Virus record (IMG/VR): IMGVR_UViG_3300042475_000978
Coordinates: 1 to 30,480 of that record
Direction: 5' to 3' (one strand)
From: a virus
Length of the DNA: 30,480 bases
The translations under genes and the position numbers were made by a program. Each line of letters begins with the position of its first letter. Position 1 is the stretch's first letter. Below, piece after piece: positions 1 through 28,453 of the stretch. Below the pieces are notes generated by a model. It was not told the DNA's origin. It worked only from the letters and a program-made list of their open reading frames with translations, and made no database searches.

Positions 1-57
1 ATATTTAACTGCCTTGACACCTTTTTTATGTTCGTTTAATAGTTGTTCTATTTTCAT
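1..57 (-). CDS. N-terminus of an unidentified protein, cut by the left edge
   Basis: Only the first 19 codons lie in the window (MKIEQLLNEHKKGVKAVKY). The ATG at 57-55 overlaps the TGA stop of the upstream gene in an ATGA junction, the same coupling used repeatedly in this region, and this supports a real start. The first nine residues end in L-L-N-E and resemble the short leader seen on neighbouring proteins. No function can be assigned from this stub. Confidence 0.6.
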   Translation of the reverse strand, partial: MKIEQLLNEHKKGVKAVKY

Positions 58-770
58 AATGATTTAAGACTCAATTCTTCATCTTCTAAATTATAGATAT
101 GTTGCCTTAACTTATCTATTAATCCTCTAGCACGTAATACTTTAAAAGCTAGATTCTCTACGCTAAATTCACCCGCGCGGTCTAACCCTGCTTTGCGTAT
201 TCGTGCTATTTCGTCCTTAATTGCTTGAGCTTGATCAATATCTTTGCTCTGTAATGCCTGCTGTATTTTATCAGTGTAATTATTTACCTTGTCTTGTACG
301 TCGTCATCATTGATGTTAGCACGTTCTGATTTAGGTTCACTAATCCAACGATCGTCTAACACACTGTAAATACCTGCACTATGATGTACCTGTTCACTGT
401 CCTGCACATATACTTCAACATCTATACCCTTGACCTTGATATCATGATTAAAATTATACTGATTCTTTTTAGCATCAAATAAACTTTTTAGGTATATGGA
501 TTGTTCCTGAGATACTGTGACAATTAAGTGCAAATCTAAATCGCTATGTTTGGTATAAGTGTATGCGGCGTTGCTACCGCTGATAGTGATGTCTTTGAGA
601 TTTAACTTAGGAATATCAATGAAATCTATAAAATGTTTAGCAATTTGTAATAGTTTAAATCGAATTATAGGTTTTAATTGATTATTTTTCCAAAGACGTG
701 GATTTAAAGTATCATGAAAGATAACAGCATCATCTACTACAGCTTCTTGTGTAAGTTCTCTCAAATACAT
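54..770 (-). CDS. Pol-beta superfamily nucleotidyltransferase-like protein
   Basis: A 238-aa protein that looks like a minimal nucleotidyltransferase. ITISGSNAAYTYTKHSDLDL (61-80) contains the G-S helix turn (G65-S66) and the D77-x-D79 metal pair. A likely third carboxylate is in GIDVEVYVQD (D117/E119). The family is widespread in marine T4-like phages, but its substrate is not known to me. The C-terminal half (about 150-235) is helical and charged. The N-terminus, MYLRELTQEA, resembles a T4-type capsid-targeting leader with a possible L/I-x-x-E processing site, so the protein may be head-packaged; this is inference. It starts 3 nt after the stop of the upstream coiled-coil gene and ends in an ATGA overlap with the next gene. 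The fold assignment is firm; the biological role is unknown. Confidence 0.82.
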   Translation of the reverse strand: MYLRELTQEAVVDDAVIFHDTLNPRLWKNNQLKPIIRFKLLQIAKHFIDFIDIPKLNLKDITISGSNAAYTYTKHSDLDLHLIVTVSQEQSIYLKSLFDAKKNQYNFNHDIKVKGIDVEVYVQDSEQVHHSAGIYSVLDDRWISEPKSERANINDDDVQDKVNNYTDKIQQALQSKDIDQAQAIKDEIARIRKAGLDRAGEFSVENLAFKVLRARGLIDKLRQHIYNLEDEELSLKSL

Positions 771-773
771 TGT

Positions 774-1160
774 TCATTGTTCTAATATTTTTACTACAGT
801 TTCCCAATAAGCACCTATCCATCCTAATACTGCTATTCCACCTAGTATTAAGTATGACCATTTTGCTCTAAATTTTTCTAGATCTGATATTTTATCAGCT
901 AATTCATTATGTTGCTCTGTCTGTATCTTGTGCAGTTCGTCTGCATGAGCAAAAAATTTGTCTCTATTAGATCTATACTCACCTAGCATAGTGTCCAGCT
1001 TCTCATTGACCTGATCTCTAGTACGATCTAGGCAATCATGCATGTCTTTAACATCGACTTTTAAGTCATCTAACTTTTCGTCAATCGCTTCTACTTTAGT
1101 TTCCAACACACTAACACGTTCTTGTGTAGGAATAGCTTCTAATTTTGCTGCTCGTGCCAT
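774..1160 (-). CDS. Coiled-coil protein with C-terminal membrane anchor
   Basis: 128 aa. Residues 15-100 are almost entirely charged heptad-like helix (for example VSVLETKVEAIDEKLDDLKV), followed by one hydrophobic segment at about 101-117 (WSYLILGGIAVLGWIGA) and a short tail. This layout, a soluble coiled coil and then a single C-terminal transmembrane helix, is seen in XhlA-type lysis accessory proteins and some phage membrane proteins, but there is no diagnostic motif. An AAGGAG ribosome binding site lies about 7 nt before the ATG, and a T4-like late promoter box lies 72 nt upstream, so this gene probably has its own late transcript. No recognised holin, endolysin or spanin sits beside it, so a lysis role is only one possibility. 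Confidence 0.75.
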   Translation of the reverse strand: MARAAKLEAIPTQERVSVLETKVEAIDEKLDDLKVDVKDMHDCLDRTRDQVNEKLDTMLGEYRSNRDKFFAHADELHKIQTEQHNELADKISDLEKFRAKWSYLILGGIAVLGWIGAYWETVVKILEQ

Positions 1161-1231
1161 TGGGGCATCTCCTTGTAATTTTTGTTGTTAAAAAATGCCA
1201 AAAAAATGCCTAATTTTGTGCCTGTACATTA

Positions 1232-1239
1232 TATTTATT
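1232..1239 (-). promoter_or_regulatory. T4-like late promoter box AATAAATA
   Basis: On the minus strand the sequence reads CAATAAATATAATG, close to the T4 late consensus TATAAATA. It overlaps the TAA stop of the upstream gene and lies 72 nt before the coiled-coil gene at 1160, leaving room for a leader and the AAGGAG site. The match is by eye. Confidence 0.55.
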
Positions 1240-1609
1240 GTTTAAAATCAAAAATGATATTATGCCCTAATTTAAAATATGCAGCGTCTAGCTCCACATC
1301 TTCAGTTAAATTAGCTATAAATGGTACAAATTCAAAACTGTCTTTTAATTTTCCTATGTTGTCGCCATCTTTAGAAAATACTTCTTCAGATTCCATGTGC
1401 CATTCAAAGTACCAACAATCGATGTCAGGACGTCCAAATATATCAGCGGGTATTCGTTTAGGTGCTTGATCATAATGCATGTTGCCGCTGAGTTGTATGG
1501 TCTGTGTTACAGTATCAAAGTTTTGTTGTTGATTACGCTCTAGACTTTTACCACTTCTATGTTGTCCTGTGGCTGTAATGTCCGCTAATGTATAAAGATA
1601 ATAAAGCAT
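1235..1609 (-). CDS. Unknown phage protein, 124 aa
   Basis: I do not recognise this protein. The frame is open from 1663, but the upstream part runs through a clear terminator hairpin and encodes a spurious hydrophobic stretch. I therefore take the ATG at 1609, giving MLYYLYTLADITATGQHRSG. The protein is acidic in its C-terminal half, with the segment WYFEWHMESEEVFSKDGDN and many aromatic residues, and looks like a compact soluble or structural protein. No strong Shine-Dalgarno sequence precedes 1609. It sits downstream of the highly structured gene at 1679-2101 but beyond its terminator, so it may depend on read-through. Confidence 0.65.
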   Translation of the reverse strand: MLYYLYTLADITATGQHRSGKSLERNQQQNFDTVTQTIQLSGNMHYDQAPKRIPADIFGRPDIDCWYFEWHMESEEVFSKDGDNIGKLKDSFEFVPFIANLTEDVELDAAYFKLGHNIIFDFKQ

Positions 1610-1628
1610 TAGTTTATTTAACAGCCAT

Positions 1629-1654
1629 AAAAAAAGGCCTACAAAAAGTAGGCC
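1629..1654 (-). terminator. Rho-independent terminator after the 1679-2101 gene
   Basis: A perfect 7-bp stem, GGCCTAC / GTAGGCC (1636-1642 with 1648-1654), has a 5-nt loop and is followed on the minus strand by seven U residues (1629-1635). It lies 25 nt past the stop of the structural gene and is well formed. The same stem sequence recurs upstream of that gene. Confidence 0.85.
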
Positions 1655-1678
1655 CCTTCCCATCCCTAGGAAAAACTA

Positions 1679-2101
1679 TTATACGTGGTTAGCTAATAGT
1701 GGGAAACCTGTGCCACGAGTAACTGTTGCAGAGGTTAAGTCGATGCTGTTTGCACCAACTGTTGCACCTAGGCCCTGAATAAGGTCTTCTAAGTGAGCTG
1801 CGAAACTTTCGCTGTTTGTACCATCATATGTATCAGTACCAAAATCGCCTTCGACGTAGATGTCGATTAACTGACCTGCGTTAGCGCCTGAGTCTGCACG
1901 TAAAGCACTGTGACCAACAATGGTACACATTGTGCTGATAGTACGTAGTGCAATTTGTACACACTCATTTGGGCCCATTTCTGTTGAACCAAAGTTTGTT
2001 GCGTTGACTGCAAAGTCAAGCGTGTACATGTCTAGGGTTTTACCTAGGAAAAATCTACCTGTATTTGCTAATTCTGGATTAACTTTTGTTTGAATCGCCA
2101 T
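1679..2101 (-). CDS. Putative virion structural protein (marine T4-like family)
   Basis: 140 aa, beginning MAIQTKVNPELANTGRFFLG. It is rich in small and polar residues, with IYVEGDFGTDTYDGTNSESF and a regular hydrophobic pattern typical of small beta-rich phage structural proteins. I recognise the overall pattern (MAIQTK..., LRADSGAN, VEGDFGT..YDG..SE) from marine T4-like phage hypothetical or structural proteins, but cannot name a T4 counterpart. It has a strong AGGAG site 7 nt before the ATG, a leader with two hairpins and a terminator directly downstream. It is thus set up as its own transcription unit, fitting an abundantly made virion or assembly protein. The exact role is unknown. Confidence 0.75.
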   Translation of the reverse strand: MAIQTKVNPELANTGRFFLGKTLDMYTLDFAVNATNFGSTEMGPNECVQIALRTISTMCTIVGHSALRADSGANAGQLIDIYVEGDFGTDTYDGTNSESFAAHLEDLIQGLGATVGANSIDLTSATVTRGTGFPLLANHV

Positions 2102-2108
2102 AATAAAT

Positions 2109-2113
2109 CTCCT
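2109..2113 (-). promoter_or_regulatory. Ribosome binding site AGGAG of the structural gene
   Basis: AGGAG on the minus strand, 7 nt before the ATG at 2101, directly follows the two leader hairpins and leaves the start region itself unpaired. Confidence 0.7.
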
Positions 2114-2125
2114 CGTTTGGCTTTT

Positions 2126-2160
2126 GCTTGTTCTCTACAAGCAGCCTACACCATGTAGGC
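2126..2160 (-). promoter_or_regulatory. Two tandem hairpins in the 5' leader of the 1679-2101 gene
   Basis: On the minus strand, GCCTACA-TGG-TGTAGGC (2144-2160, 7 bp) is followed one base later by GCTTGT-AGAGA-ACAAGC (2126-2142, 6 bp). Neither has a U-tract, so these are probably leader structures (transcript stabiliser or translation control) rather than terminators. A degenerate late-promoter-like GTAAATAA lies just upstream, around 2171-2178. The first stem repeats the GCCTAC/GTAGGC sequence of the downstream terminator. Confidence 0.55.
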
Positions 2161-2221
2161 CATTGTAATATTATTTACCAAAACTAGAAAAAATACTGCT
2201 GATATGCTGTATTTTGTTGCT

Positions 2222-3367
2222 TTAGGTAGGAGTCCACCGACGTCTAGGCACTAGTTTTACATTACCAAACTGTTTTTTAGGGTCTGCATAGCGCACACGC
2301 CCTTCACCTTCTGTATCCCAAATTTCTCCTCGACCTTGTTCTGCCTGGTCAATAACTTGATCTTTGAGATTCATTATTCTAGATACTAAACCAAAAATAG
2401 CATCCAGTGCTTGTGAATTTTCTCTAGATTTTTGTTCAATTTTTGTCTGCTTAGGTGTACTAACTTTACTGGATTTTAACCAATTGAAAAAGTGGTTAGC
2501 ACCTAAATTATCTAATTGGTGGCCTTTGGCTGTTTGATTAACATAGGTATATAAAATATTTTTTAGATCTCCTAGTCCAGGAGTTTCTTGTAAAAAGTTA
2601 TCAATCTGTTTACTGTGCTGCCCAAGATAATTTTCTACGGCTTCTATTTCCGATGTATCTAAGCTGACAGGATTGCTATTATAAACAGGACCTTGAACAA
2701 TCAATTGAGGATTTTTGTTAAACATGCTAAAATCATCTAAAGGCTTTTGTTCACTGTCATCCATGCCAAACTCAGGAAAGTAAGCATGACCAACTACCAT
2801 GACCCTAGCATTACTGATGCTCTGTCCTAGTGGACTATCCTGTCTAACATGGTAGCAAGTTTTACTTTTAGGATTAGGACAAAATGTATAAACGCCATTT
2901 TCTAATTTAGGAGGAGCTAGGAACAATCCATCAGCATACACAAACCCAACAAAGTTTTTAGGTGTTGATCTATCAAATAATGGATATAGATTAGCAAATT
3001 GTTTAGCAAACATTTGTCTAGCACGAGATTCTTCTGGGGTTTTAGGACTGCCACTTTTATTGGCAATAAAGTCTTCGAGATCGTTAGGATTATCAGTCTT
3101 AGCACCACGGGTCCAACCATTATGTCCAGATAAAATTAATGGGCCGCCTGCACGTTCTCTTCCCCAATAAATTTGGGGATTGCCATCCCATTTCATTCTA
3201 AGGCTTTGACTGCCTTCTGAGGACATTAATTCTTTAAGATGTTCTAGTGCTTCCATAGTGCCTCTGCTACCGTGAAAAAACACTAGATCTTCTAAGTGGT
3301 TAAATGCTCTACCTAATTTTTTAAGCACAGGCTTTGTTTCTTCAAATAAAAATTCTTTAGCTCTCAT
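2222..3367 (-). CDS. KWDG-motif protein, ligase/nucleotidyltransferase-like (DUF6267-type)
   Basis: 381 aa. LRMKWDGNPQIYWGRE (57-71) carries K-W-D-G, matching motif I (KxDG) of ATP-dependent DNA/RNA ligases and capping enzymes, in which the Lys (K59 here) is adenylated. FVGFVYADGLFLAP (139-152) resembles the later F-x-G-x-x-x-D/E-G-L-F strand of that fold. The rest is not a standard ligase. The family occurs in marine T4-like phages, usually annotated as unknown; the DUF6267 label is from memory. The N-terminus MRAKEFLFEE closely mimics the T4 internal-protein leader (EF-I/L-x-E), suggesting head packaging and cleavage (inference). The start overlaps the metalloprotease stop (ATGA), making it the last gene of a coupled four-gene set. 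Whether it joins nucleic acid or adenylates protein is unknown. Confidence 0.8.
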   Translation of the reverse strand: MRAKEFLFEETKPVLKKLGRAFNHLEDLVFFHGSRGTMEALEHLKELMSSEGSQSLRMKWDGNPQIYWGRERAGGPLILSGHNGWTRGAKTDNPNDLEDFIANKSGSPKTPEESRARQMFAKQFANLYPLFDRSTPKNFVGFVYADGLFLAPPKLENGVYTFCPNPKSKTCYHVRQDSPLGQSISNARVMVVGHAYFPEFGMDDSEQKPLDDFSMFNKNPQLIVQGPVYNSNPVSLDTSEIEAVENYLGQHSKQIDNFLQETPGLGDLKNILYTYVNQTAKGHQLDNLGANHFFNWLKSSKVSTPKQTKIEQKSRENSQALDAIFGLVSRIMNLKDQVIDQAEQGRGEIWDTEGEGRVRYADPKKQFGNVKLVPRRRWTPT

Positions 3368-3771
3368 TCGAATATATCTCTATGTAATTTACCGTATAGT
3401 TTCATTAGATAGCCAGCTTTTGCATCTGCTTCAACTTCTAATGGACTGCCTGGACCATGTTCCTTGGCACGTTGAATATCACCTACTTGTCCTTGTTTAA
3501 CATGCACTAGTTCATGACACACAGTTCTTAATATGTCTACCATATTACGATTACCTACATAAACGACCATATGATTATTTTGAAAATCATACTGTCCTGT
3601 TCTATGTTGATCTTGTGCGTCATCTTTATCGTAGCTAAACACTATCTGTAATGGCTCGTCAGCAAGGCCGATTCTTTTCTTTGACCATTCAATAAAATGT
3701 TTAACTCTTTGTTCTCGACGATTACTAGGTTTAACAATGTCTTCGATACGATCTAATTCTTGAAATCTCAT
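3364..3771 (-). CDS. Small HExxH zinc metalloprotease-like protein
   Basis: 135 aa. CHELVHVKQG contains the zinc motif H86-E87-L88-V89-H90, and a glutamate in LEVEADAKAGYLM (E112 or E114) about 25 residues later is a likely third ligand. This H-E-x-x-H...E arrangement is shared by SprT-like and ImmA/IrrE-like zincins. The fold is compact, with a short helical N-terminal region. The leader MRFQELDRIE again has the M-R-x-x-E-L...E pattern. Both ends overlap neighbours by ATGA, between a nucleotidyltransferase and a KWDG protein, so co-translation is likely. The target protein is unknown; processing of virion or host proteins is possible. Confidence 0.82.
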   Translation of the reverse strand: MRFQELDRIEDIVKPSNRREQRVKHFIEWSKKRIGLADEPLQIVFSYDKDDAQDQHRTGQYDFQNNHMVVYVGNRNMVDILRTVCHELVHVKQGQVGDIQRAKEHGPGSPLEVEADAKAGYLMKLYGKLHRDIFE

Positions 3772-4529
3772 TGTAACCTATCCATCATCATACGGAACCA
3801 ATCTGTAGTTCCGACATTTACACTTTCATTCTGTTTAGGCCAGTTTTCATCTGAAACCGCATTTCTGGCTCTAGGGTCATTGATGCCTTGTGGCAATTTT
3901 TCCAGTATTCTTTCTACACTGCCTAAGTCTTGACCTGACGCACCTGGTCCTAATAATACCACTGCTACTTCATCGGCATCTTGACTGATTAGATCAGCTT
4001 TTTTACCATCAGGTCCTCGGGAAAATAATCCTTGAAATCCGCTCCACATCATTCCATAAGGGTGTTCAGATGTTCTAGTTTCTTTAGCAATACTGGATAA
4101 GAGAATATGTTTATGTACTCCTTTGAATGGAGTGTTTTCTACGCTATAATCATGTTGATGAAATTTACTGACCTGTCCTGCATTTTTTACCAACATTATG
4201 TCTACTTGAGCAAACTTATCACCGTTAGGTATTTTCACATGCACATTAATACCTGTTTGTGCAGATGCATAACCTCTATCCATTAAGTAATTTTTTAAAC
4301 TGGCTCTAGCTGATTTTTCATCTTTAGTAGCTGTAGCTTTAAGCATTTGTTCTGCATCAACCATTATGTCCATATCGCCTGAACTGGCTTTATGTCCGGC
4401 GGATCCTACAGGAATTAAATCAATTCCTTTGGGCATGATATTCTGTGCAAATTTAAAAATTGCTTCTGCTTCTTTTTTGCTAAAAGGTTCTACATCGGGA
4501 AAAACATTTCCGCCCTCATTTAAGATCAT
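3768..4529 (-). CDS. Pol-beta-type nucleotidyltransferase-like protein
   Basis: Start chosen at ATG 4529 (MILNEGGNVFPDVEPFSKKE), with an AGGAAAG site about 7 nt upstream; the open frame extends to 4595 but that part is covered by the preceding gene. The protein is 253 aa. LIPVGSAGHKASSGDMDIMV holds G42-S43 and D52-x-D54, the metal-binding signature of the superfamily, and FAQVDIML gives a third Asp (D110). KFHQHDYSVENTPFKGVHKH is a conserved-looking central segment. It differs clearly in sequence from the other nucleotidyltransferase at 54-770. It overlaps the upstream gene by 14 nt and the metalloprotease by ATGA. Substrate unknown. Confidence 0.83.
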   Translation of the reverse strand: MILNEGGNVFPDVEPFSKKEAEAIFKFAQNIMPKGIDLIPVGSAGHKASSGDMDIMVDAEQMLKATATKDEKSARASLKNYLMDRGYASAQTGINVHVKIPNGDKFAQVDIMLVKNAGQVSKFHQHDYSVENTPFKGVHKHILLSSIAKETRTSEHPYGMMWSGFQGLFSRGPDGKKADLISQDADEVAVVLLGPGASGQDLGSVERILEKLPQGINDPRARNAVSDENWPKQNESVNVGTTDWFRMMMDRLQ

Positions 4530-4776
4530 TTTTGCTTTCCTGTATTTTTTTAATGCCGCGTTTAAATTTAGCTGGTTCACCGGTACGGATAGCATTTAAG
4601 AATCGACGCTCTAATTCAGCTGCGGTTTCTAAATCATACTGTTCTTTGATCAAACTTAGTAAGTTGATTGCACTTTCGATTAGATTGCTGCCTCTGCTTT
4701 CGATGACTTGATCCTTATCTCGACTTATGCCCAAGTCACTTAATTCTTGTAGGATACTTCTAGTGCTTTTCCTCAT
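4516..4776 (-). CDS. Small helical protein, first gene of the enzyme cassette
   Basis: 86 aa, strongly charged and predicted helical (MRKSTRSILQELSDLGISRD at the start, AAELERRFLNAIRTGEPAKF toward the end). Proteins of this shape sit before the same nucleotidyltransferase in other marine T4-like phages as I remember them, but no function is known to me. A possible AAAGGA site lies upstream of the ATG. The 3' end overlaps the nucleotidyltransferase start by 14 nt. It could be a partner or an adaptor for the downstream enzymes. Confidence 0.72.
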   Translation of the reverse strand: MRKSTRSILQELSDLGISRDKDQVIESRGSNLIESAINLLSLIKEQYDLETAAELERRFLNAIRTGEPAKFKRGIKKIQESKNDLK

Positions 4777-4826: not shown

Positions 4827-4834
4827 AATAAATA
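4827..4834 (+). promoter_or_regulatory. T4-like late promoter box AATAAATA
   Basis: Plus-strand AATAAATA matches the late consensus at seven of eight positions. It lies 29 nt before the ATG at 4864, with AGGAG at 4853-4857. It is the only evident promoter for the rightward three-gene unit. Confidence 0.55.
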
Positions 4835-8674: not shown

Positions 8675-9133
8675 TTAACTCCAAGGGCGGCCTTTTTTAA
8701 GACCTCCAACATTAGCATTATCTACCACAGTGTTGCCTGAATATTTTGTTGGTAGGTTATCTCTATCGTAAGTGTTACCTAAACGATAATAACCTACTGT
8801 TACACTGCTGTCATCGCCCGGAGTACCTCTACGCTTTAACTGTGCTATTTCTAGTTTTTGTATTTGTCTACGCTCTCTGCTACCACTTTGCTCCGGTGTA
8901 CAAATAATTAAATCACCGTCGACTATACCTGCTGCTGCACAGGTAGTAGAACTATCTCCTAGAGCTATGCTATTAATACTAGGATTTCCTTCTACACTAA
9001 TGTTATAGTAGTCTGTAGGAAGCCCTTCGTCTCCAGCAATAGCTGTAATCAAATCATCCAAGGTTGCTGTAACCAGATCAATAGTTACATCATCTCTTAT
9101 ACCAGTCAGTCCTTTATAATACAGTGTAGCCAT
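8675..9133 (-). CDS. Putative virion protein with ubiquitin-like-fold pattern
   Basis: 152 aa. The first about 80 residues show a beta-grasp-like rhythm ending in AAAGIVDGDLIICTPE, reminiscent of the G-I-x-D/E-G-D-x-I turn in ubiquitin-like folds. A charged helix follows (RERRQIQKLEIAQLKRRG), and then a Tyr/Asp-rich tail with YRLGNTYDRDNLPTKYSGNT and a C-terminal G-R-P-W. The tail pattern is familiar from marine T4-like phage proteins of unknown role. The start shares one base with the upstream stop (TAATG), and the stop lies 3 nt before the next gene. The fold call is inference. Confidence 0.7.
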   Translation of the reverse strand: MATLYYKGLTGIRDDVTIDLVTATLDDLITAIAGDEGLPTDYYNISVEGNPSINSIALGDSSTTCAAAGIVDGDLIICTPEQSGSRERRQIQKLEIAQLKRRGTPGDDSSVTVGYYRLGNTYDRDNLPTKYSGNTVVDNANVGGLKKGRPWS

Positions 9134-9468
9134 TATTGCTCCCTATAAGGATTATGTTGATGTGCTGGATACATACTAGAGTGAGCAGTTCTAATGTCAG
9201 CAGGATGCTTTGGTTCGTTAGGGCCACCGCCAGCGTCTGTGGTTACAGAACTTACAGGAGCGTATTGAGGATTAGGAGCGTTGCTTAAAGGACTCATTTC
9301 TCCTGGATCTTGCAAGCCTGCAATCTGCTTCATTCTACGAACTTCATCATCATAAGGATTGCTGTCGGATTCTGGTTCAGGTTTCACAACTATAACAGGT
9401 TCCGGAGCAGGGTTTTCTGCCTGATCCAGCATCTGTAATACTGCTTGTATAAGTTCTTGTGCTCGCAT
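9133..9468 (-). CDS. Small Pro-rich protein with capsid-leader-like N-terminus
   Basis: 111 aa. MRAQELIQAVLQMLDQAENP gives an amphipathic helix starting with the M-R-A-x-E-L pattern seen on several proteins at the left of the window. A proline/acid-rich linker (PAPEPVIVVKPEPESDSNPY) follows, and the C-terminus has HPADIRTAHSSMYPAHQH. It looks mostly disordered, with short conserved tags, as expected for a virion-associated or scaffolding-type protein. AGAGGA lies upstream of the ATG, and a degenerate late box at 9487-9494 lies 19 nt upstream. Function unknown. Confidence 0.68.
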   Translation of the reverse strand: MRAQELIQAVLQMLDQAENPAPEPVIVVKPEPESDSNPYDDEVRRMKQIAGLQDPGEMSPLSNAPNPQYAPVSSVTTDAGGGPNEPKHPADIRTAHSSMYPAHQHNPYREQ

Positions 9469-9507: not shown

Positions 9508-10371
9508 TTAATAATATCTGTGTGCTTTTAGATATTCTAAGTATTCTTCTACGCCCTGTTTTAAAGTTCTAAACTTGCTAATATCTATTCCGGCAAATGT
9601 AAGAGCACTTGTGTCTGCTTGTGTCCAAGTTTGATACTGTTTTTGTAAATCCTCAGGCATATCAATATATTTCTTTTTACCTTTTAAATTTTTCAGCATT
9701 TGATCAGCTACAGTTTCAAAATTATGCGCCGATCCTGTGCCTACGTCATACACACCAGGTTTGTAATTATTCATAAAATGCCAAATTACCTGAGCCACAT
9801 CTTCTACATAGATGAAGTCTCTATAATAAGACATACTTTCTTGGAATAATTTTAATTGTTTATCTTGTTGTAGCTGATTATACCAATGAAATAGTGTACT
9901 AGCCATACGCCCTTTATGATATTCATTTGGGCCATACACATTAAATAATCTTAGAATTACAGCGTTGTCTAATTCTTGTTCACTTACATATTTGCTAAAT
10001 GCATATTGACTAGCAGGTCTATTATCTCCTAGTCCGTAAACTCCTGCACTGCTGGTAAAGATAAAAGGTATATTCTTATACTGGCACCAATTATACCATT
10101 CTCGTGTGCTTAGTACGTTTCTATTGTAATAATCTTTCCAATCTTTGTCTAAGGTACTAGAATTGGCACCAATGTGTATAACACAGTCTACGTCTACACC
10201 CCAGTCATCTGATCCTAACAACATCTTATACTCTTTGCCTACGAGATTTTTATATTGTTCTGGATGAGGCAAGTCATCAAATATGATAATATCACTAATA
10301 CCCTGTTGGTTAAGATATCCTAATACTACACTGCCAATAAATCCTCCGGCACCTGTAAGTGCTATCTTCAT
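9508..10371 (-). CDS. hldD: ADP-glyceromanno-heptose 6-epimerase-like (extended SDR)
   Basis: 287 aa, slightly shorter than the roughly 310 aa of bacterial HldD. The Rossmann motif GAGGFIGS is at 7-14; TSSAGVYG precedes the catalytic Y123-x3-K127 (QYAFSKYVSE). The HldD-typical segments NVYGPNEYHKGRMAST (including the second lysine, K153), RDFIYVEDVA, GTGSAHNFETVADQ and YQTWTQADTS are all present in order. HldD converts ADP-D-glycero-beta-D-manno-heptose to the L-glycero form in LPS inner-core synthesis. It is the last gene of the glycan block, overlapping the kinase stop by ATGA. The acceptor of the heptose is not known. Confidence 0.9.
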   Translation of the reverse strand: MKIALTGAGGFIGSVVLGYLNQQGISDIIIFDDLPHPEQYKNLVGKEYKMLLGSDDWGVDVDCVIHIGANSSTLDKDWKDYYNRNVLSTREWYNWCQYKNIPFIFTSSAGVYGLGDNRPASQYAFSKYVSEQELDNAVILRLFNVYGPNEYHKGRMASTLFHWYNQLQQDKQLKLFQESMSYYRDFIYVEDVAQVIWHFMNNYKPGVYDVGTGSAHNFETVADQMLKNLKGKKKYIDMPEDLQKQYQTWTQADTSALTFAGIDISKFRTLKQGVEEYLEYLKAHRYY

Positions 10372-11126
10372 TGTATTTCCTCTAAAGTTGGAGCATATAC
10401 TCCGATGTGCTGCACAGTAATGCTACTAGCTCGAACAGCAAATGGAATAGATTTTTTTATACTACCTTGTTCTAGATATGCGTAAGTCAATGCGGCGAGA
10501 AAAGTATCTCCGGCGCCGCATACATCTGCTACTTCTATTTCAGGAGTAGAGTATATAACATCTTTATATTTTGCACCTCGAGAACCCAGAGTAATAATTA
10601 AATCTGTACATTCGCTCTCTGCTTCTTTATATTCTTTTTCGTTTATTTTAACAAAGATGCCTTCAAAATGTTGAAGATCAGTCATTTTAGTATCCATAAA
10701 AATAGGACCATTGAATTTTTGTTTAATTTTACTTACTACTGTATAATCTACAGACCCTTTAGCATAATCACTAATTACTACAGCATCATAGTTATTGATA
10801 GTTTTACAATCTATTTTTACCGGTCTACTGGTTTGATCTTGATCTACTCTAATCAATTGCTGTTTACTTCTAATATCTATTAATCTAGTTTTAATACAAG
10901 TTTTAGCCCCATGTATAAAATCCACATGACATCCTAAACGTTGTAAATTTGTCTGTACATTAGCTGCCATACCTGGTTTAGTTTCTGAATATTTAAAATC
11001 AAAAACAGGTACAGGTCCTTCTGGACTTATTCTTGTAACGTCCCCATATTGATATTGATCAATACCATTATCCCCGATTAATAATATCTTGTATTGTTTT
11101 TGTAGTTGAGTGTTCTGTTCTATCAT
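10368..11126 (-). CDS. hldA: PfkB-family heptose-7-phosphate kinase (HldE kinase-domain homologue)
   Basis: 252 aa. RISPEGPVPV (32-41) matches the RISPEAPVPV signature of the HldE kinase domain, followed by KPGMAANV, SKQQLIRVDQ, VVISDYAKG and the PfkB signature DVCGAGDTFLAAL with the catalytic Asp. The family phosphorylates D-glycero-D-manno-heptose 7-phosphate at C1. Compared with the about 315-residue bacterial domain it lacks roughly 30 residues after the GMAANV region, so it is a compact version. The ATG lies 59 nt inside the adenylyltransferase gene; the strand ILLIGD needed for the fold begins inside that overlap, so a later start is unlikely. ATGA links it to the epimerase. Confidence 0.87.
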   Translation of the reverse strand: MIEQNTQLQKQYKILLIGDNGIDQYQYGDVTRISPEGPVPVFDFKYSETKPGMAANVQTNLQRLGCHVDFIHGAKTCIKTRLIDIRSKQQLIRVDQDQTSRPVKIDCKTINNYDAVVISDYAKGSVDYTVVSKIKQKFNGPIFMDTKMTDLQHFEGIFVKINEKEYKEAESECTDLIITLGSRGAKYKDVIYSTPEIEVADVCGAGDTFLAALTYAYLEQGSIKKSIPFAVRASSITVQHIGVYAPTLEEIQ

Positions 11127-11466
11127 AAAATATTACCTTAGGAACATGTTGTTCTCCTACAATACTACGACCTCGATAATCACTGCCTTTTACCATTATG
11201 TCTGGTTTGTATTCTTTAATAATGTTGATTAATTCTTCCTTAGAATCAAATAACATCACAGTGTCAACTGTTCTTAAATTATACAACATAAACCTTCTAT
11301 CATCTTGATTATTAATTGGTCGAGTATTGCCTTTTAGTTCTTTAACTCTACGATCTGTATCGATACAAACTAATAATTGATCTCCTTGACTTCGTGCAAA
11401 TTGCAATAGTTCCAAATGTCCTCTATGCAATATGTCAAATGTACCATTAACTATTACTTTGCTCAC
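11068..11466 (-). CDS. hldC: Heptose-1-phosphate adenylyltransferase (HldE second-domain homologue)
   Basis: 132 aa, the size of one cytidylyltransferase-fold domain. GTFDILHRGHLEL contains the nucleotide-binding H14-x-G-H17, with VKGSDYRG and the C-terminal HSTTKTIQDI typical of HldE domain II and RfaE2-type enzymes. The expected reaction is ATP plus heptose-1-P to ADP-heptose. In many Gram-negative bacteria this domain is fused behind the kinase; here it is a separate gene placed before it. The start overlaps the cupin stop by 20 nt, and the last 59 nt are shared with the kinase gene in another frame. A glycerol-3-P or FAD-type nucleotidyltransferase is less likely given the context. Confidence 0.88.
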   Translation of the reverse strand: MSKVIVNGTFDILHRGHLELLQFARSQGDQLLVCIDTDRRVKELKGNTRPINNQDDRRFMLYNLRTVDTVMLFDSKEELINIIKEYKPDIMVKGSDYRGRSIVGEQHVPKVIFYDRTEHSTTKTIQDIINRG

Positions 11467-11830
11467 TTTGACTATCTCCTGGAGCGATACGATAATTGTC
11501 TTCTACTGAATCAGCAGTGCTAACTTCGAAAATTATGCTGTTAGGTTGCAGTGCTTCTAATTGATGCGGCTGTAAAGGAGGATTGTGCCATACATCTCCT
11601 TCCTTAAGCAATTTTTCATGCATAGTGGCTGTTTTGGTATCTATATATCTAAGCATAAATTGTCCTGCATTTACAAACCAAGTTTCATCTTTTTCCTTAT
11701 GAAAATGCATACTGAATTTAGCTCTAGCACGTTCAAACACCATAAGTTTTCCACAATACTTGTCGTTAGTGGCCCAAATAATTTCATAGCCCCAACCTTT
11801 CTTAACCATACCTTCTAATCGTTGTGTCAT
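11447..11830 (-). CDS. Cupin, mannose-6-phosphate isomerase type II-like
   Basis: 127 aa. KGWGYEIIWATNDKYCGKLM opens as in the C-terminal isomerase domain of ManC and related small cupins. Cupin motif 1 is FSMHFHKEKDETW...G with ligands H42, H44 and E49; motif 2, EGDVWHNPPLQPHQLEA, supplies H89. Such enzymes isomerise phosphorylated sugars or act as sugar-nucleotide 3,4-ketoisomerases; which sugar is used here cannot be read. Beside heptose genes it might replace or complement the missing sedoheptulose-7-P isomerase step, but that is speculative. The start overlaps the stop of the large glycosyltransferase (ATGA). Confidence 0.83.
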   Translation of the reverse strand: MTQRLEGMVKKGWGYEIIWATNDKYCGKLMVFERARAKFSMHFHKEKDETWFVNAGQFMLRYIDTKTATMHEKLLKEGDVWHNPPLQPHQLEALQPNSIIFEVSTADSVEDNYRIAPGDSQSEQSNS

Positions 11831-14800
11831 TGTTTTTTCCTAAAATAGTAATCACCATCAGGCCCATTAGTACAAAATTGTCCAAGATTTTCAAAACCCA
11901 AAGATTCCATATAGGTTATTACTTCATCTTTTAAAGGAGCCCCTTTATTATATTCTACACTTTGACATTCTAAAATAACATGATTACAATTGGATAGAGT
12001 TTCTTGAGCACCTTTTAATACATCTAATTCAGCACCTTGCACATCCATTTTGATTAAATCTGGTTTAGGTAATTTTTTTAAATTCACTACAGCATCTAAG
12101 GTAACAGTAGTATACTGTCGTCTATGACTGTCATTAAAGTATTCATGTGCTTCAGCATTGACTTCTATGTTTTCTCTATAATAACTGTTACCGCCTGGAT
12201 GATAAGTGTTTTGATAGAAATCTACTTGTCGACCAGTAGTGTCACTAAGAACTCCAATATGATATTGTAAATTTTGTTCTTTATAGATAAATTCACATTC
12301 TGGCATAGCTTCAAATACAACATATTCCGAGTCAGGCCAAATACGTCGAGCTTCGTTGGTCCAGTGTAATACACATGCACCTATATCATAGACTACTTTA
12401 GGCTCTATAGATAAAGTTTTTAAATATTCTACATGCTGGTATGGAATTAATCTTTGACTGCCTAATTCTCTTAATCGATCTGTATAATCTGTAATTTTGG
12501 GAATCGGAGCAACTTCTGGCGTAATGTTAAAATGTGTTTGACCTATATGGCTACATACAATACTAGTATCTGCCCAAATAGTAAATCCTTTATCTTTAGC
12601 TTTGCGACAAAAATCTATATCTTCGCTAATTGTATGGCTATGATCTAGTGCAGGATAATACATAAATTGTGGATATCCAATTGATCTAAACACTTCCGAT
12701 TTAACTAGTACACAGCCAAACCCGCAAGCTGCTATTTCCACTACGCCTCGATTTTGTATTTTATAGTAAGGTATATGATTCACACCACCAGTATTATTGT
12801 TTTCATATACTTCTAGTATTTGCTCAGGTTTACGTTGTCTGTAAATTCCAGTGACTACATCTTTGTTATGACTTAATAGTTTTTGTAATGTATCAGGAGC
12901 GAATGCCATATCTGCATCTACTGCCCAAAGATAATCGTATCCTTTGACTGCCCAATCTGCAATAAGATTGCGAACTTGATCTACTCTATATCCATAGAAG
13001 TACTGAAATGTGGTTTGGTAATCCTCGGGTATTATCTGATCGTAGATGCTCTTGAATGTCTCCGGCTCTATATTCCTGGCTGTGGGTATGGCTATTAGTA
13101 TCTTTTTTTTTAACATAGTAGGTTTACTTATAATGTTTCTTGCTGTACGATTTTGTTCTTCTGCATTAACTTTGTAATCATTTAACGGATTGGTATCATT
13201 ATAATTGTACACTATATCCTGTAAACATGCAACTTTATTTGGATCAGCTTGTTCAATTAGTGCATAAAATACTGCGCCATCTCCTCCTGCCCTGTACCAT
13301 TCATTGTTTTCATTTTGAAATAAACTATCATCACAATTATCTATGAGATATTTCTTAAATGTTCTTAAATGAGTGTAAGGTAAAATCCAATTAAAATGGT
13401 GCTGTCTATATGTTTTGCTTTGTTTTACTTCTTCAGGATATGGTTGGCTGATTAGGGGTATGTTATCAACCATACTCCAACAACTGCCATATGTAAATTC
13501 TAGATTGTCACTGTACAACGTATTGTAGTATGATAAAATAGTGTTGTCATTTATTAGGCTGTCGTCGCCATCTAGAATCATTATAATGCTGTTTTGTTCT
13601 AATGTTCTAAACAATTCTACTTGATTACGTACAGCACCTAGATTTTGTTCATTAACAATCAGTGTTATCTTATTTTGTATATGTTGTGGTAAACTATCAA
13701 TAAATCTATAGGCTACATCTACAGTATCATCTGTGCTAGCATCATCTATTAAGTAATGATGATAGTTGTCATAGTCTTGACAGATTACACTTTCTATACA
13801 ACGTTCAATGTAGTTTCTATTATTATAGAAAGTGCTGACTATATTGATCTGCTGTTCTGTATTAGATTTATAGTTTTCTAACTCTACAACATTATGATAA
13901 CGTCTATTATAAACTTTATGTACTCTACGATTTATTTTACTAACTTGACGATATTCTTCTAGGCTAAGATATAGTCCACAGGTTTTATAGAAAAACTGTT
14001 TCCATTGTAATGCCACAGTGTCCCATCCTGCTATAGGCTTGACTACATTACAATAGTATTGTTTTTGTTGATGTAGATAAGTGTTATGATACGCCTGTAC
14101 AGTTTGCTCGACAAATTTTTTAATTTGAGCTTCTCGATTTATATCTGTGAAAAGAGAATTAGGTTCTATGGCATAATCAATAAGATAGCAACTACCTTCC
14201 AAGGCAACTTCTTCCAGCGCACCAAATCTACAAGTTATTACTGGTGTGTTATAACATATACTTTCTAGTGTACTGATACCAAATGTTTCGGGAAAAGCAG
14301 CAGGATATATCATAAAGTTAGCAGCAGCTAATCTATCTGCTATTTCACTCTGAGGAATGATACCTGTGAATTCTATATCTAGTTGTGCATTAGCAGGGTC
14401 ATTGGCCATTTGACGCCAATCTAATTCTTGTTGGTCTGGTTGGCCATTTACTGTAAATCTATAATAGCCGCCTATTACAGTAAGTTTAGCTTCAGGTAAT
14501 TGTTGTTTAACTCTAGGCCATATGTCTTTAACTAAAGGAATCATACCTTTGGTTACACTGGCATTATAAACGAATCTGTTAGGATCTTTGGCTTTTATGT
14601 CGACTTCTTGTTTGTGCAAGTGAGCACCGTTGCGTGTGATAAAAGTTTTGTTTTTAAGAACTTCAAAGTTTCGTCTACGTCCGTGATGGCAATTTAGTAC
14701 ATAGGTCAAGTGCCAATCGCTGAGAGTAAAGATAGTAGTAATTTTATTTGAAGTTGTTAGTTCTTCAATAAAATTATCGCCAAGACAAAATGTATCGTGC

Positions 14801-15177
14801 ATCCATAGGATACGCTGTTTGGCCTTGCTTAGAATTCTTTCATAGATGTTCTTACTGGCAAATGGTAGTGCTCTACTATCACCTACCTGTTGGAATTGAT
14901 TATTGGTTAAGAATGGAATTACAGTTCTACTGCTGATCACAATATCAAAATCATAATCATTGGATAGTGCTGATAATGGCAAGTAATTCACACCGTCGTA
15001 TTGACCAGGTGTTGCATGATCCAAATTACAGTTATTGAACACTGTAACTTCAAAATTTAATTTGGCAAGTTCTTTACTGATGTATGTTACGGCACTTTCT
15101 GAACCGCCAAGACCTTGTTTAAAAACGGTTGAGCCGTCGTAAGGTATACCAATTATATCTATAATAGCTAATTTCAT
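11827..15177 (-). CDS. Four-domain glycosyltransferase / FkbM methyltransferase fusion
   Basis: 1116 aa with four visible catalytic modules. Residues 1-400: GT-B fold, GT4-type glycosyltransferase, with GLGGSESAV near the N-terminus and the E-x7-E motif PETFGISTLES (E297, E305). Residues 443-690: GT2-type GT-A domain, INIVSTFYNNRNYIERCIES, DDAST and the metal motif DGDD (536-539). Residues 690-905: a second GT-A-like domain with AVDADMAF and SEDIDFCRKAKDKG. Residues 915-1116: FkbM-type SAM methyltransferase with VVYDIGACVLHW, FEAMPE and KMDVQGAELDVLKG. It could build and O-methylate a short glycan. Substrates are unknown. It heads the glycan block; no good Shine-Dalgarno sequence precedes the ATG, though AT-rich promoter-like sequence (TATAAT) lies within 15 nt. 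GC is low, as in the other glycan genes. Confidence 0.9.
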   Translation of the reverse strand: MKLAIIDIIGIPYDGSTVFKQGLGGSESAVTYISKELAKLNFEVTVFNNCNLDHATPGQYDGVNYLPLSALSNDYDFDIVISSRTVIPFLTNNQFQQVGDSRALPFASKNIYERILSKAKQRILWMHDTFCLGDNFIEELTTSNKITTIFTLSDWHLTYVLNCHHGRRRNFEVLKNKTFITRNGAHLHKQEVDIKAKDPNRFVYNASVTKGMIPLVKDIWPRVKQQLPEAKLTVIGGYYRFTVNGQPDQQELDWRQMANDPANAQLDIEFTGIIPQSEIADRLAAANFMIYPAAFPETFGISTLESICYNTPVITCRFGALEEVALEGSCYLIDYAIEPNSLFTDINREAQIKKFVEQTVQAYHNTYLHQQKQYYCNVVKPIAGWDTVALQWKQFFYKTCGLYLSLEEYRQVSKINRRVHKVYNRRYHNVVELENYKSNTEQQINIVSTFYNNRNYIERCIESVICQDYDNYHHYLIDDASTDDTVDVAYRFIDSLPQHIQNKITLIVNEQNLGAVRNQVELFRTLEQNSIIMILDGDDSLINDNTILSYYNTLYSDNLEFTYGSCWSMVDNIPLISQPYPEEVKQSKTYRQHHFNWILPYTHLRTFKKYLIDNCDDSLFQNENNEWYRAGGDGAVFYALIEQADPNKVACLQDIVYNYNDTNPLNDYKVNAEEQNRTARNIISKPTMLKKKILIAIPTARNIEPETFKSIYDQIIPEDYQTTFQYFYGYRVDQVRNLIADWAVKGYDYLWAVDADMAFAPDTLQKLLSHNKDVVTGIYRQRKPEQILEVYENNNTGGVNHIPYYKIQNRGVVEIAACGFGCVLVKSEVFRSIGYPQFMYYPALDHSHTISEDIDFCRKAKDKGFTIWADTSIVCSHIGQTHFNITPEVAPIPKITDYTDRLRELGSQRLIPYQHVEYLKTLSIEPKVVYDIGACVLHWTNEARRIWPDSEYVVFEAMPECEFIYKEQNLQYHIGVLSDTTGRQVDFYQNTYHPGGNSYYRENIEVNAEAHEYFNDSHRRQYTTVTLDAVVNLKKLPKPDLIKMDVQGAELDVLKGAQETLSNCNHVILECQSVEYNKGAPLKDEVITYMESLGFENLGQFCTNGPDGDYYFRKKQ

Positions 15178-17979: not shown

Positions 17980-17987
17980 TATTTATC
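17980..17987 (-). promoter_or_regulatory. T4-like late promoter box GATAAATA
   Basis: Minus-strand TTGATAAATAAC matches the late consensus at seven of eight positions in the intergenic space before the gene at 17963. The leader would be very short (the box is 17 nt from ATG), so it is plausible but not certain. Confidence 0.45.
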
Positions 17988-18006: not shown

Positions 18007-18771
18007 TTATGTAGGAGTATATTTAATTTTTACAAATAAATCAATTATAGAAGTGTTACTAGTAATATCAATAGTCAGGTAATCAGTGGTCAGCAAACTT
18101 ACATTTATATTTACGGGTGTCATCGCATACTGATTTTGACTGATACTAAAGGTTGTGCCAATACTAGTGCCATTTTTCTTTATAATAAAAGTAAATGCGC
18201 CACTGGCTGACGGACTTGATACATTAGCATAAACTGTGCTAAGTGTTACATTCTGCGGGGAATAAAATCTAGAAATACCGCTATAGGCATTACTAATTGT
18301 GCCCGTTGTTGCCATAGTTACATAAGTAGATCCATCGAGTCCTCTACTTCCTGTATATCCATTTGGTGGTCCTTCGCTACCTGTGTATCCTACGACTCTT
18401 CCTACATCGGTAAAACTACTACCGCCCCATACCCAAAGATTACCAGTATCGGAAGTAATATAACCGTCACCGATATCTCCAACGTATGGATCTGGAAGAT
18501 TCGCACTAGATGCGACTGTGCCTACAATAGTTACACTAGTACCATTAGTTCCATTTGTACCAGAGGAGCCAGTATATCCTTGACTACCAGTATAACCAAT
18601 AGCTGCTGCTTCACCGGGTGCACCTTGACTACCAGTAAATCCAACACTACCGGTATATCCTGTGGTCACACTGGATGCTTGCCATGCTCGGCCGTTCCAA
18701 ATCCATTTTTTAGTTCCAAAAGTATAGACTTGATTTAATGTAGGATTGGCAGGAAAATTTACTGTAGTCAT
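18007..18771 (-). CDS. Short collagen-like tail fibre protein
   Basis: 254 aa. The N-terminus (VYTFGTKKWIWNGRAWQ) is a short Trp-rich beta unit often seen at the front of marine phage fibres. Collagen-like G-Y/F-T-G-S repeats run at about 38-77 and again at about 128-147, flanking a small globular unit (GDIGDGYITSDTGNLWVWGG) that resembles units in the larger fibres. The C-terminal about 100 residues form a beta-sandwich-like region ending in LFVKIKYTPT. Probably a trimeric fibre or fibre accessory. It begins about 10 nt after the stop of the LamG protein. Confidence 0.78.
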   Translation of the reverse strand: MTTVNFPANPTLNQVYTFGTKKWIWNGRAWQASSVTTGYTGSVGFTGSQGAPGEAAAIGYTGSQGYTGSSGTNGTNGTSVTIVGTVASSANLPDPYVGDIGDGYITSDTGNLWVWGGSSFTDVGRVVGYTGSEGPPNGYTGSRGLDGSTYVTMATTGTISNAYSGISRFYSPQNVTLSTVYANVSSPSASGAFTFIIKKNGTSIGTTFSISQNQYAMTPVNINVSLLTTDYLTIDITSNTSIIDLFVKIKYTPT

Positions 18772-18780
18772 GATCTAATT

Positions 18781-23932: not shown

Positions 23933-23941
23933 TTTTCTTCC

Positions 23942-26165: not shown

Positions 26166-26168
26166 TTA

Positions 26169-28421: not shown

Positions 28422-28445
28422 TTTTAAAATCTGCTGTTATTTTAA

Positions 28446-28453
28446 TATTTATC
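28446..28453 (-). promoter_or_regulatory. T4-like late promoter box GATAAATA
   Basis: Minus-strand TGATAAATATTA embeds the box in the TGA stop of the upstream fibre gene, 24 nt before the next ATG at 28421. It is one base from TATAAATA. The position between two large fibre genes suits a late promoter. Confidence 0.5.

What the first reader, a model, noticed from the sequence alone, without database searches (positions are those of the whole stretch)
54..4776. Several left-end enzymes begin with T4 capsid-targeting-like peptides: possible packaged, injected effectors
T4 internal proteins start with a short leader (MKTYQEFIAE) that directs them into the prohead and is cut after I/L-x-E by the prohead protease. 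Here MRAKEFLFEE (2222-3367), MYLRELTQEA (54-770), MRFQELDRIE (3364-3771) and, more loosely, MKIEQLLNE (1-57) and MRAQELIQAV (9133-9468) share the M-x-x-x-E-F/L-x-x-E shape. The enzymes attached are two kinds of nucleotidyl-transfer folds and a zincin, comparable in style to the T4 Alt protein carried in the head. If true, this is a set of host-modifying proteins delivered with the DNA.
Basis: partly seen in the sequence, partly recalled or inferred. Interest (0 to 1): 0.75.

Follow-up and report, generated by a model that had tools for sequence, protein, structure and literature searches.

The report
Head-targeting tags on phage enzymes
A giant relative of phage T4 seems to put the same short address tag on several unrelated enzymes, and the tag looks like the one T4 uses to load proteins into its head for delivery into the bacterium; one enzyme at this locus carries it clearly, two more probably do.

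Summary
A tighter leader is real. In the protein at 2222-3367 (DUF6267), 43 of 43 distinct full-length homologues keep E5 and 42 keep hydrophobic-x-E at residues 9-11, before a variable linker. A profile trained only on these leaders reaches score 10 at 18 of 2412 N-termini in six T4-like genomes against 2 of 8215 internal Met; hits include a GRFNPPH nucleotidyltransferase, the protein at 54-770 and T4 Alt. The phage lineage has a T4-type prohead protease, a capsid-protein LAE site and a scaffold rich in I/L-x-E. A cytidyltransferase published as present in cyanophage S-SM1 virions begins MKKFSAFLNEA, like the T4 capsid-targeting sequence. So 2222-3367 is probably head cargo; 54-770 and the truncated 1-57 gene plausibly; 3364-3771 and 9133-9468 are not supported. 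DUF6267 looks ligase-like. Virion presence and cleavage are untested for these proteins. New variant of a known kind.

The parts
3341..3367 (-). Leader MRAKEFLFE of the DUF6267 protein: predicted capsid-targeting peptide, predicted cut after E9 (L-F-E)
   Evidence: E5 in 43/43 and hydrophobic-x-E at 9-11 in 42/43 distinct homologues; residues 1-18 pLDDT under 50 in the model
2222..3340 (-). Body of the DUF6267 protein: predicted ligase-like covalent nucleotidyltransferase (K59-W-D-G; E355-G356; K371)
   Evidence: PF19782 54.2 bits, cut-off 27; invariant KWDG; VIA rows 1-43 all DNA/RNA ligases, Z 5.0-6.5
744..770 (-). Leader MYLRELTQE of the second nucleotidyltransferase-like protein (probable targeting peptide; P3 is T, not I/L)
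   Evidence: E5 and E9 kept in 16/16 aligned sequences (16 of 22 hits used) through a one-residue deletion; profile score 13.7; model residues 1-16 pLDDT under 50
54..743 (-). Body: Pol-beta-type nucleotidyltransferase-like protein (GSNAAY...SDLDLHL)
   Evidence: phrog_36119 5.2e-50; PF01909 only 0.039, below cut-off; conserved motif
1..57 (-). Start of a gene cut by the window end: leader MKIEQLLNE (LNE) then basic HKKGVKAVKY; full product 636 aa in G001
   Evidence: relatives or look-alikes MKIDHLLNEHKKG, MKIKQLLLEFKKG, MKRNEIISEFKKG
3364..3771 (-). Zincin-like protein (HELVH); leader resemblance weak, MRF.EL[DE]RIED lacks an I/L-x-E site
   Evidence: 10 hits; profile score 4.3; distant G003 homologue starts MKAHQIVDEHKKG
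3768..4529 (-). Pol-beta-type nucleotidyltransferase-like protein; likely true start 4529 (MILNEGGNVF), not 4595
   Evidence: homologues start MILLEGGN; Atu_ph07 CDS 65 aligns at 21% identity
4516..4776 (-). First gene of the unit; matches a PHROG of virion structural proteins
   Evidence: phrog_11854 7.5e-15, 'virion structural protein'
774..1160 (-). Coiled-coil protein with C-terminal hydrophobic segment, first gene of the unit holding 54-770 and the 1-57 gene
1232..1238 (-). T4-type late-promoter core ATAAATA, 72 bases upstream of the 774-1160 / 54-770 / 1-57 unit
   Evidence: in G001, 57 of 69 such words lie within 150 bases upstream of a same-strand gene
9133..9468 (-).
   Evidence: no E9; profile score 5.2; homologue MRAAEILRKLADII

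Best explanation
The protein at 2222-3367 is a predicted adenylyl-transferring, ligase-like enzyme carrying a 9-residue capsid-targeting leader. In the infected cell the leader would dock the enzyme on the prohead core built around the gp22-like scaffold; the phage's gp21-type protease would then cut after the leader's hydrophobic-x-E, freeing the enzyme inside the head, to be delivered with the DNA. The same leader type sits on unrelated proteins of the lineage (GRFNPPH nucleotidyltransferase, a 123-aa acidic protein, an 85-aa protein, the 54-770 nucleotidyltransferase), so it is a portable tag for head cargo. Shown here: leader conservation, sharing across unrelated families, disorder in the model, protease gene, protease-type sites in capsid protein and scaffold. 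Inferred: docking, cleavage, packaging, injection, enzymatic activity.
For: Leader kept while the linker varies (8-17 aa), with synonymous codon variation: E5 43/43, hydrophobic-x-E 42/43, of which I/L-x-E 26. Profile from these leaders alone: 18/2412 N-termini (two of them DUF6267) against 2/8215 internal Met at score 10 or more, 13 against 0 at 11 or more, in six genomes; T4 Alt, annotated as present in the capsid and entering the host, ranks 18th. In the neighbourhood set, without DUF6267: 66/1484 N-termini against 12/5863 internal Met. S77 prohead protease in G001 and G003. Capsid-protein site KYLAE|SA in G001/G003 where T4 has FLTE|A, and 20 [IL].E in the G001 scaffold against 7.5 shuffled (0/1000), as in T4 gp22. 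A pattern built on the T4 IPIII mutagenesis positions matches 8/2412 N-termini and 0/8514 internal Met; one of the 8, a DUF6267 relative in phage Melnitz, counts only with a TTG start, so 7 with ATG starts. S-SM1 cytidyltransferase T4-GC190, reported in virions by MS (PMC3037559 passages), starts MKKFSAFLNEA. Leaders disordered in both models.
Against: No virion data for this phage. P3 of the predicted site is F, Y or V in 16 of 43 homologues, outside the T4 rule. DUF6267 relatives in the three cyanophages read (S-RSM4, ACG-2014i, S-SM1) have no leader. CBB, a related giant phage with 55 MS-listed virion proteins, has no N-terminus scoring 8 or more among 614. Loose versions of the motif are not enriched. 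Best score per family separates weakly: 10 of 703 clusters by N-terminus, 5 by internal Met. The profile also picks T4 mobD.3, a hypothetical protein with no known head role (score 11.8), and gives T4 IPII and IPIII only 4.3. The G001 portal is also raised in [IL].E (11 against 5.4, 12/1000), so site density is not special to the scaffold. The DUF6267 gene's own unit shows no exact ATAAATA upstream.
Confidence: 0.67

Rival explanations
1. The leader is a docking peptide for another assembly (tail, baseplate or a cytoplasmic complex) and is not cut; the hydrophobic-x-E pattern only reflects an amphipathic binding helix.
For: P3 varies beyond I/L in 16 of 43 homologues; 54-770 has T or F at P3; one homologue (L059) has D at P1; leader genes lie near tail and structural genes in window and G001.
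Against: The E survives one- and two-residue length changes of the leader; a relative of one of these enzymes bears a T4-like leader and is a virion protein; in T4, D at P1 blocks cutting but not targeting (PMC9026906 section 10).
Confidence: 0.19
2. Chance resemblance plus shared ancestry: short N-termini rich in K/R, L/I and E look alike, and conservation within one family says nothing about targeting.
Against: Out-of-family profile hits far exceed internal Met controls; the leader is kept where the next 8-17 residues are not; T4 Alt is recovered.
Confidence: 0.09
3. The leader holds the enzymes in the prohead core only during assembly (a core or scaffold role), and they are degraded or expelled before DNA packaging, so nothing is injected.
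For: T4 core proteins are cut up and mostly removed from the head (PMC9026906 passages).
Against: Catalytic-type residues are invariant (KWDG); the S-SM1 cytidyltransferase is found in purified virions (PMC3037559 passages).
Confidence: 0.05

Closest known systems
T4 internal proteins IPI-III and their capsid-targeting sequence (CTS)
   Same: Short N-terminal leader ending hydrophobic-x-E on otherwise unrelated proteins; S77 prohead protease in the lineage; aromatic or large hydrophobic residue before the site
   Different: Window leaders are 9-11 aa of the MRAKEFLFE / MLLRELFxxE type without the aromatic residue 4 of T4; cargo is enzymes; P3 is sometimes F or Y
T4 Alt, head-carried ADP-ribosyltransferase
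   Same: Its N-terminus MELITELFDE is picked up by the DUF6267-leader profile (rank 18 of 2412); an enzyme carried in the head
   Different: Different enzyme; Alt loses an N-terminal propeptide of 7 residues by one review, shorter than the leader here
S-SM1 cytidyltransferase T4-GC190
   Same: Family shared with the leader-bearing GRFNPPH protein of G001 (phrog_395/3041); T4-like leader; published virion protein
   Different: Gene not in the window; in S-SM1 the adjacent DUF6267 protein has no leader
Atu_ph07 array of 11 genes with leader M[KR][WL].[QD]L.E
   Same: Leader ending L-x-E on enzymes; giant phage near G001 by portal similarity; lies in a published virion-protein cluster
   Different: Leader letters differ; eight aligned members look like ADP-ribosyltransferases, not ligase-like; which members are in virions was not seen
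SPN3US head ejection proteins with propeptides
   Same: Giant-phage head proteins cut after x-x-E by a gp21 relative (PMC5694885 passages)
   Different: Most SPN3US propeptides are much longer and the motif is A-x-E

Membership tests
T4-type CTS-bearing internal proteins (for 2222-3367) | Short N-terminal leader shared with unrelated proteins of the same phage group | tested here: met
T4-type CTS-bearing internal proteins (for 2222-3367) | gp21 site L/I-x-E at the leader end | tested here: met
   L-F-E in the window protein; family-wide 26/43 I/L-x-E and 16/43 other hydrophobic-x-E
T4-type CTS-bearing internal proteins (for 2222-3367) | S77 prohead protease encoded by the same phage | tested here: met
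   G001 84820-85278, E 1.3e-25; G001 contains the window at 100% identity; the window fragment itself has none
T4-type CTS-bearing internal proteins (for 2222-3367) | T4 targeting positions: aromatic at residues 4 and 7 | tested here: not met
   MRAKEFLFE has K4 and F6 with a one-residue shift; it does not match the T4-mapped pattern
T4-type CTS-bearing internal proteins (for 2222-3367) | Protein in the mature head, leader removed, ejected into the host | not testable with these tools
   needs virion N-terminal proteomics
Covalent nucleotidyltransferase (RNA/DNA ligase) superfamily | Motif I KxDG | tested here: met
   K59-W60-D61-G62 invariant in 42 sequences including cyanophage relatives
Covalent nucleotidyltransferase (RNA/DNA ligase) superfamily | Ligase nucleotidyltransferase fold | tested here: inconclusive
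   VIA rows 1-43 all ligases but Z only 5.0-6.5; Foldseek no match at E 0.001 or better
Covalent nucleotidyltransferase (RNA/DNA ligase) superfamily | Catalytic lysine superposes on K59; adenylylation activity | not tested
   residue-level superposition not inspected; assay needed
Pol-beta-type nucleotidyltransferase (54-770) | GS-x(n)-SDxD motif and Pfam-level match | tested here: inconclusive
   motif conserved but Pfam 14.8 bits against cut-off 21; fold rows only over the helical residues 145-238
CTS-bearing set (for 3364-3771) | Leader ending I/L-x-E | tested here: not met
   MRF.EL[DE]RIED in close homologues
CTS-bearing set (for 9133-9468) | Leader ending I/L-x-E | tested here: not met
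   MRAQELIQAV, no E at 8-11

The most novel reading that the evidence does not exclude
Giant T4-like phages of this lineage use one family of portable head-address tags to load a whole kit of unrelated enzymes, including a ligase-like DUF6267 enzyme and its GRFNPPH nucleotidyltransferase partner, so that RNA-repair or nucleotide-modifying reactions start at the moment of DNA entry; the tag would let the injected arsenal of such phages be read from genome sequence alone.
Probability: 0.3. Interest if true: 0.82.

Novelty: new variant of a known kind. Interest (0 to 1): 0.62.

Why it matters
Which proteins a phage carries into the cell is normally found only by virion proteomics, and many giant phages are known from metagenomes alone. 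A leader that can be recognised in sequence would turn that into a prediction. It would give DUF6267, a family with matches in 468 phage records when searched with the S-RSM4 member and named in no paper of the held library, a place and time of action, and would extend the T4 packaging signal to giant phages and to new kinds of enzymes.

Tried and rejected
The loose protease rule and orthologue-pair tests gave no useful separation and are reported as negative. CBB, which has a 55-protein MS list, was tried as an association test but offers almost no candidates: its top two N-termini score 7.9 and 6.2; the second is CBB_321, annotated 'structural protein', lying between MS-listed CBB_320 and CBB_322 but itself absent from Table 4. 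Its leaderless cytitidyltransferase CBB_73 is not in Table 4. PDB sequence search with the DUF6267 profile found nothing at E 0.1 or better. Profile comparison of DUF6267 with Atu_ph07 CDS 66, which also has a K-x-DG, found no relation. T4-GC15, the other newly detected core protein of S-SM1, is not DUF6267 (S-SM1 12870-14255); whether S-SM1 DUF6267 (T4-GC71) was detected is unknown because Table S8 was not available.

Rows dropped before counts: of 77 DUF6267 tblastn subjects 73 gave a usable start; four of these (G001, G003, S-RSM4, ACG-2014i) were set aside, 69 remained, 65 were over 360 aa and 43 were distinct; in L010 an internal ATG was taken as start. The alignment sent for structure prediction held 38 sequences. 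Of the 12 internal-Met hits, three (L020, L063 at 246, L066) look like mis-started or fused leader genes, six are one family with a conserved internal copy at 106-113, two (L028, L029) start MLLRELDEKF 43 residues in and may be mis-started, and one is in G001. Single-linkage clusters are chained: the 40-member 'GRFNPPH' cluster also holds 124-138-aa proteins. The 'strict' regex and the Atu_ph07 regex were written after seeing the data.

I lowered the main confidence from 0.70 to 0.67 for the last point.

Literature: in the listings (titles and abstract starts) of searches, some capped at 10-30 rows, I saw no paper describing these leaders in this group; this is not proof of absence. The general idea that T4-like phages use CTSs to package varied proteins is in print (PMC9026906, section 10 read whole, other passages). 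PMC9503650 (passages) argues ART packaging from gene context; 'targeting sequence' was not found there and 'leader' only as 'leaders' of a field. PMC5259590: section 24 read whole, other passages. PMC3012670, PMC3037559, PMC5694885, PMC6102473 and PMC7824862: passages only.
Full report
What was checked. The window is an IMG/VR fragment that lies inside a larger record G001 of 364,554 bases at 100% identity over all 30,480 bases; G003 (383,411 bases) is a relative. Both have a T4-type prohead protease, Peptidase_S77; the window itself does not hold that gene. By portal protein, the best of 2487 matching phage records (30 listed) are giant T4-related phages such as Atu_ph07, Phosso, GAP32, CBB and PA5oct. 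Only two fit the stated shape exactly.

Chance. The bare protease rule is barely informative (163 of 2412 against 376 of 8514; the K and S controls are also raised) and is not enriched among conserved orthologue pairs (9 of 209 against 224 of 7524 internal windows).

What is not chance. For the protein at 2222-3367 (Pfam DUF6267, 54.2 bits against cut-off 27) 73 related loci were fetched. Among 43 distinct full-length proteins, E5 is kept in 43, a hydrophobic-x-E at residues 9, 10 or 11 in 42 (26 with I/L at P3, 16 with F, Y or V; one has D), then comes a linker of 8-17 residues that varies in length and sequence, then the conserved GR[AP]FNH domain. Codons for the kept residues vary synonymously (GAA 36, GAG 7 for E5), so the constraint is on the peptide. 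The model (pLDDT 88) leaves residues 1-18 disordered; the model of 54-770 (pLDDT 73.5) leaves 1-16 disordered.

A profile trained on the 28 distinct DUF6267 leader patterns only was run over six T4-like genomes: 18 of 2412 N-termini reach score 10 against 2 of 8215 internal Met, and 13 against 0 reach 11. Two of the 18 are DUF6267 proteins themselves. Others are the GRFNPPH nucleotidyltransferase of G001 and G003, an 85-aa G001 protein, the 54-770 family in both genomes, several Atu_ph07 proteins, and T4 Alt (MELITELFDE), annotated as present in the capsid and entering the host. T4 mobD.3, a hypothetical protein, also scores (11.8), and T4 IPII and IPIII score only 4.3. The same profile over the loci around DUF6267 plus G001 and G003, without DUF6267, gives 66 of 1484 N-termini against 12 of 5863 internal Met. 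Leader-bearing clusters there include the GRFNPPH nucleotidyltransferases (33 of 40 members reach 10; the cluster is chained with some 124-138-aa proteins that bear leaders too), a 123-aa acidic family (17 of 30) and the 54-770 family (7 of 11). In contigs L047 and L058 consecutive genes start with such leaders. Counted by cluster the separation is weaker: 10 of 703 by best N-terminus against 5 by best internal Met.

Link to the T4 signal. In T4 only the first ten residues of IPIII are required for incorporation; residues 4 and 7 matter for targeting, 8 and 10 for cutting, and D at 10 blocks cutting but not targeting (PMC9026906 section 10); gp21 cuts after L/I-x-E (same paper, passages). A pattern from those positions (aromatic 4, aromatic or His 7, I/L/V 8, E 10) matches 8 of 2412 N-termini and 0 of 8514 internal Met in the six genomes: three in T4 (ipII, ipIII and the hypothetical gp61.1), one orthologue pair in G001 and G003 (MKSFKEYLTES, MKLFSAYLQES), and three in Melnitz. 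One of the Melnitz three is the DUF6267 relative, but it matches only from a TTG start chosen by my script; from the annotated ATG it reads MLTLINFSKYITED, the same peptide three residues further in. With ATG starts the count is 7. The Melnitz GRFNPP protein starts MKKFSEIIEARGD. The window protein itself does not match the T4 pattern. In cyanophage S-SM1 the cytidyltransferase T4-GC190 begins MKKFSAFLNEA and is reported as detected in purified virions by mass spectrometry (PMC3037559 passages). It shares PHROG families with the leader-bearing GRFNPPH protein of G001, and phrog_455 spans DUF6267 and the cytidyltransferase in one profile. So related enzymes carry a T4-like leader in one lineage and the MRAKEF/MLLREL type in another. 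The leaderless CBB cytitidyltransferase is not among the 55 MS-listed CBB proteins; this is one case only.

The phage's own protease sites. The major capsid proteins of G001 and G003 read KYLAE|SA where T4 has FLTE|A, Melnitz FLSE|A and S-RSM4 MINE|A (cut places inferred from the T4 protein). The scaffold-like protein of G001 has 20 [IL].E against 7.5 in shuffles (0 of 1000 reach it), G003 17 against 6.4, T4 gp22 16 against 5.7; the G001 portal is also raised (11 against 5.4, 12 of 1000) and the G001 acidic core-like protein is not (2 against 2.7). Shuffles do not keep coiled-coil periodicity, so T4 gp22 serves as the yardstick. The scaffold itself starts MLEALKTLFEN, with L-F-E at residue 10.

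Atu_ph07. Eleven consecutive genes (39484-50592) start with M[KR][WL].[QD]L.E, and 16 of 833 N-termini in that genome fit M[KR][WLFYI].[QDE]L[LTNIV]E against 0 of 2394 internal Met (pattern written after seeing the array, and most hits are one paralogous family). Eight aligned members, 17-38% identical to the first, keep M1, W3, Q5, L6 and E8 together with R39, S85 and E235, which I read as an ADP-ribosyltransferase R-S-E triad (inference; two of the eight were tested against Pfam and had no match; alignment). By my count of CDS they are 53-63, inside the cluster CDS 31-76 in which 29 proteins were found in virions (PMC6102473 passages); I could not see which 29.

The enzyme. Fold comparison of the DUF6267 model puts DNA and RNA ligases in rows 1-43 (Z 5.0-6.5; T4 RNA ligase 2 at 6.2), modest values, and Foldseek alone finds nothing at E 0.001. 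KWDG is invariant in 42 sequences including cyanophage relatives; E355-G356 and K371 sit where ligase motifs IV and V would lie (motif names recalled). I therefore call it ligase-like. Whether it ligates, caps or adenylylates is open; RNA repair at DNA entry is a guess.

Expression. ATAAATA, the T4 late-promoter core (recalled), is rare in the window (4 matches, 17.4 expected). In G001, 57 of 69 occurrences lie within 150 bases upstream of a same-strand gene, in G003 55 of 72, in T4 35 of 65; six control words give 9-26% in G001. The unit of 54-770 and the 1-57 gene has one; the DUF6267 unit has no exact match.

Per-protein verdict (my estimates). 2222-3367: head cargo 0.67. The 1-57 gene: 0.55. 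54-770: 0.5 (P3 is T or F, and the residues after the leader are also conserved, so the leader is less clearly separate). 3768-4529 (short MILNEGG start): 0.2. 3364-3771: 0.2 (its distant G003 homologue starts MKAHQIVDEHKKG). 9133-9468: 0.1.

Against. No virion data for this phage; leaderless DUF6267 in the three cyanophages read; P3 variation; CBB lacks the leaders; weak cluster-level separation; T4 IPs score low and mobD.3 scores high on the DUF6267 profile. These hold the confidence at 0.67 for the leader as targeting signal; injection of an active enzyme is one step further.

Noticed in passing
window 1232-1238, 4828-4834, 17980-17986, 28446-28452: ATAAATA occurs 4 times against 17.4 expected, at or beside gene boundaries: a T4-type late-promoter word avoided elsewhere.
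   Followed up: partly
L027 6337-7371: A leader-bearing protein (MRAKEFIIERKKRRKK) holds an HD domain resembling RelA/SpoT alarmone hydrolases (Pfam HD 0.0091, below cut-off; the RelA/SpoT reading is mine), with a basic C-terminal tail like that of the G003 zincin.
   Followed up: partly
G001 174115-174372 and G001 82397-83566: The 85-aa leader protein reads LLGETATAGATSAGN, like the sequence at the predicted capsid-protein cut, YLAESATGGATSAGN; relation unexplained.
   Followed up: no
L044, L047, L063, L067, L072, L073: A family with a leader-like peptide (MRLKEMLSEAKDKMKDLKK and variants) conserved inside the frame at residues 106-113: a mis-called start or an internal cleavage site.
   Followed up: no
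L003 9311-11221 (full form of the window 1-57 gene): The 636-aa protein has a second leader-like stretch (MKISDLVEAN) inside and a DUF7230-like basic region, also seen below cut-off in leader-bearing proteins of L028 and L036.
   Followed up: no
Atu_ph07 39484-41820: Leader, then an ART-like region, then a zeta-toxin/P-loop kinase domain (PF06414 1.5e-14) in one protein of the array.
   Followed up: no
window 9508-15177: Sugar-nucleotide cluster among fibre genes: epimerase-like, RfaE-like kinase and cytidylyltransferase, cupin, and an 1116-aa glycosyltransferase-like protein (names by eye).
   Followed up: no
window 18007-30480: Several proteins with collagen-like G-F/Y-T-G-S repeats, probably fibres (by eye).
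   Followed up: no
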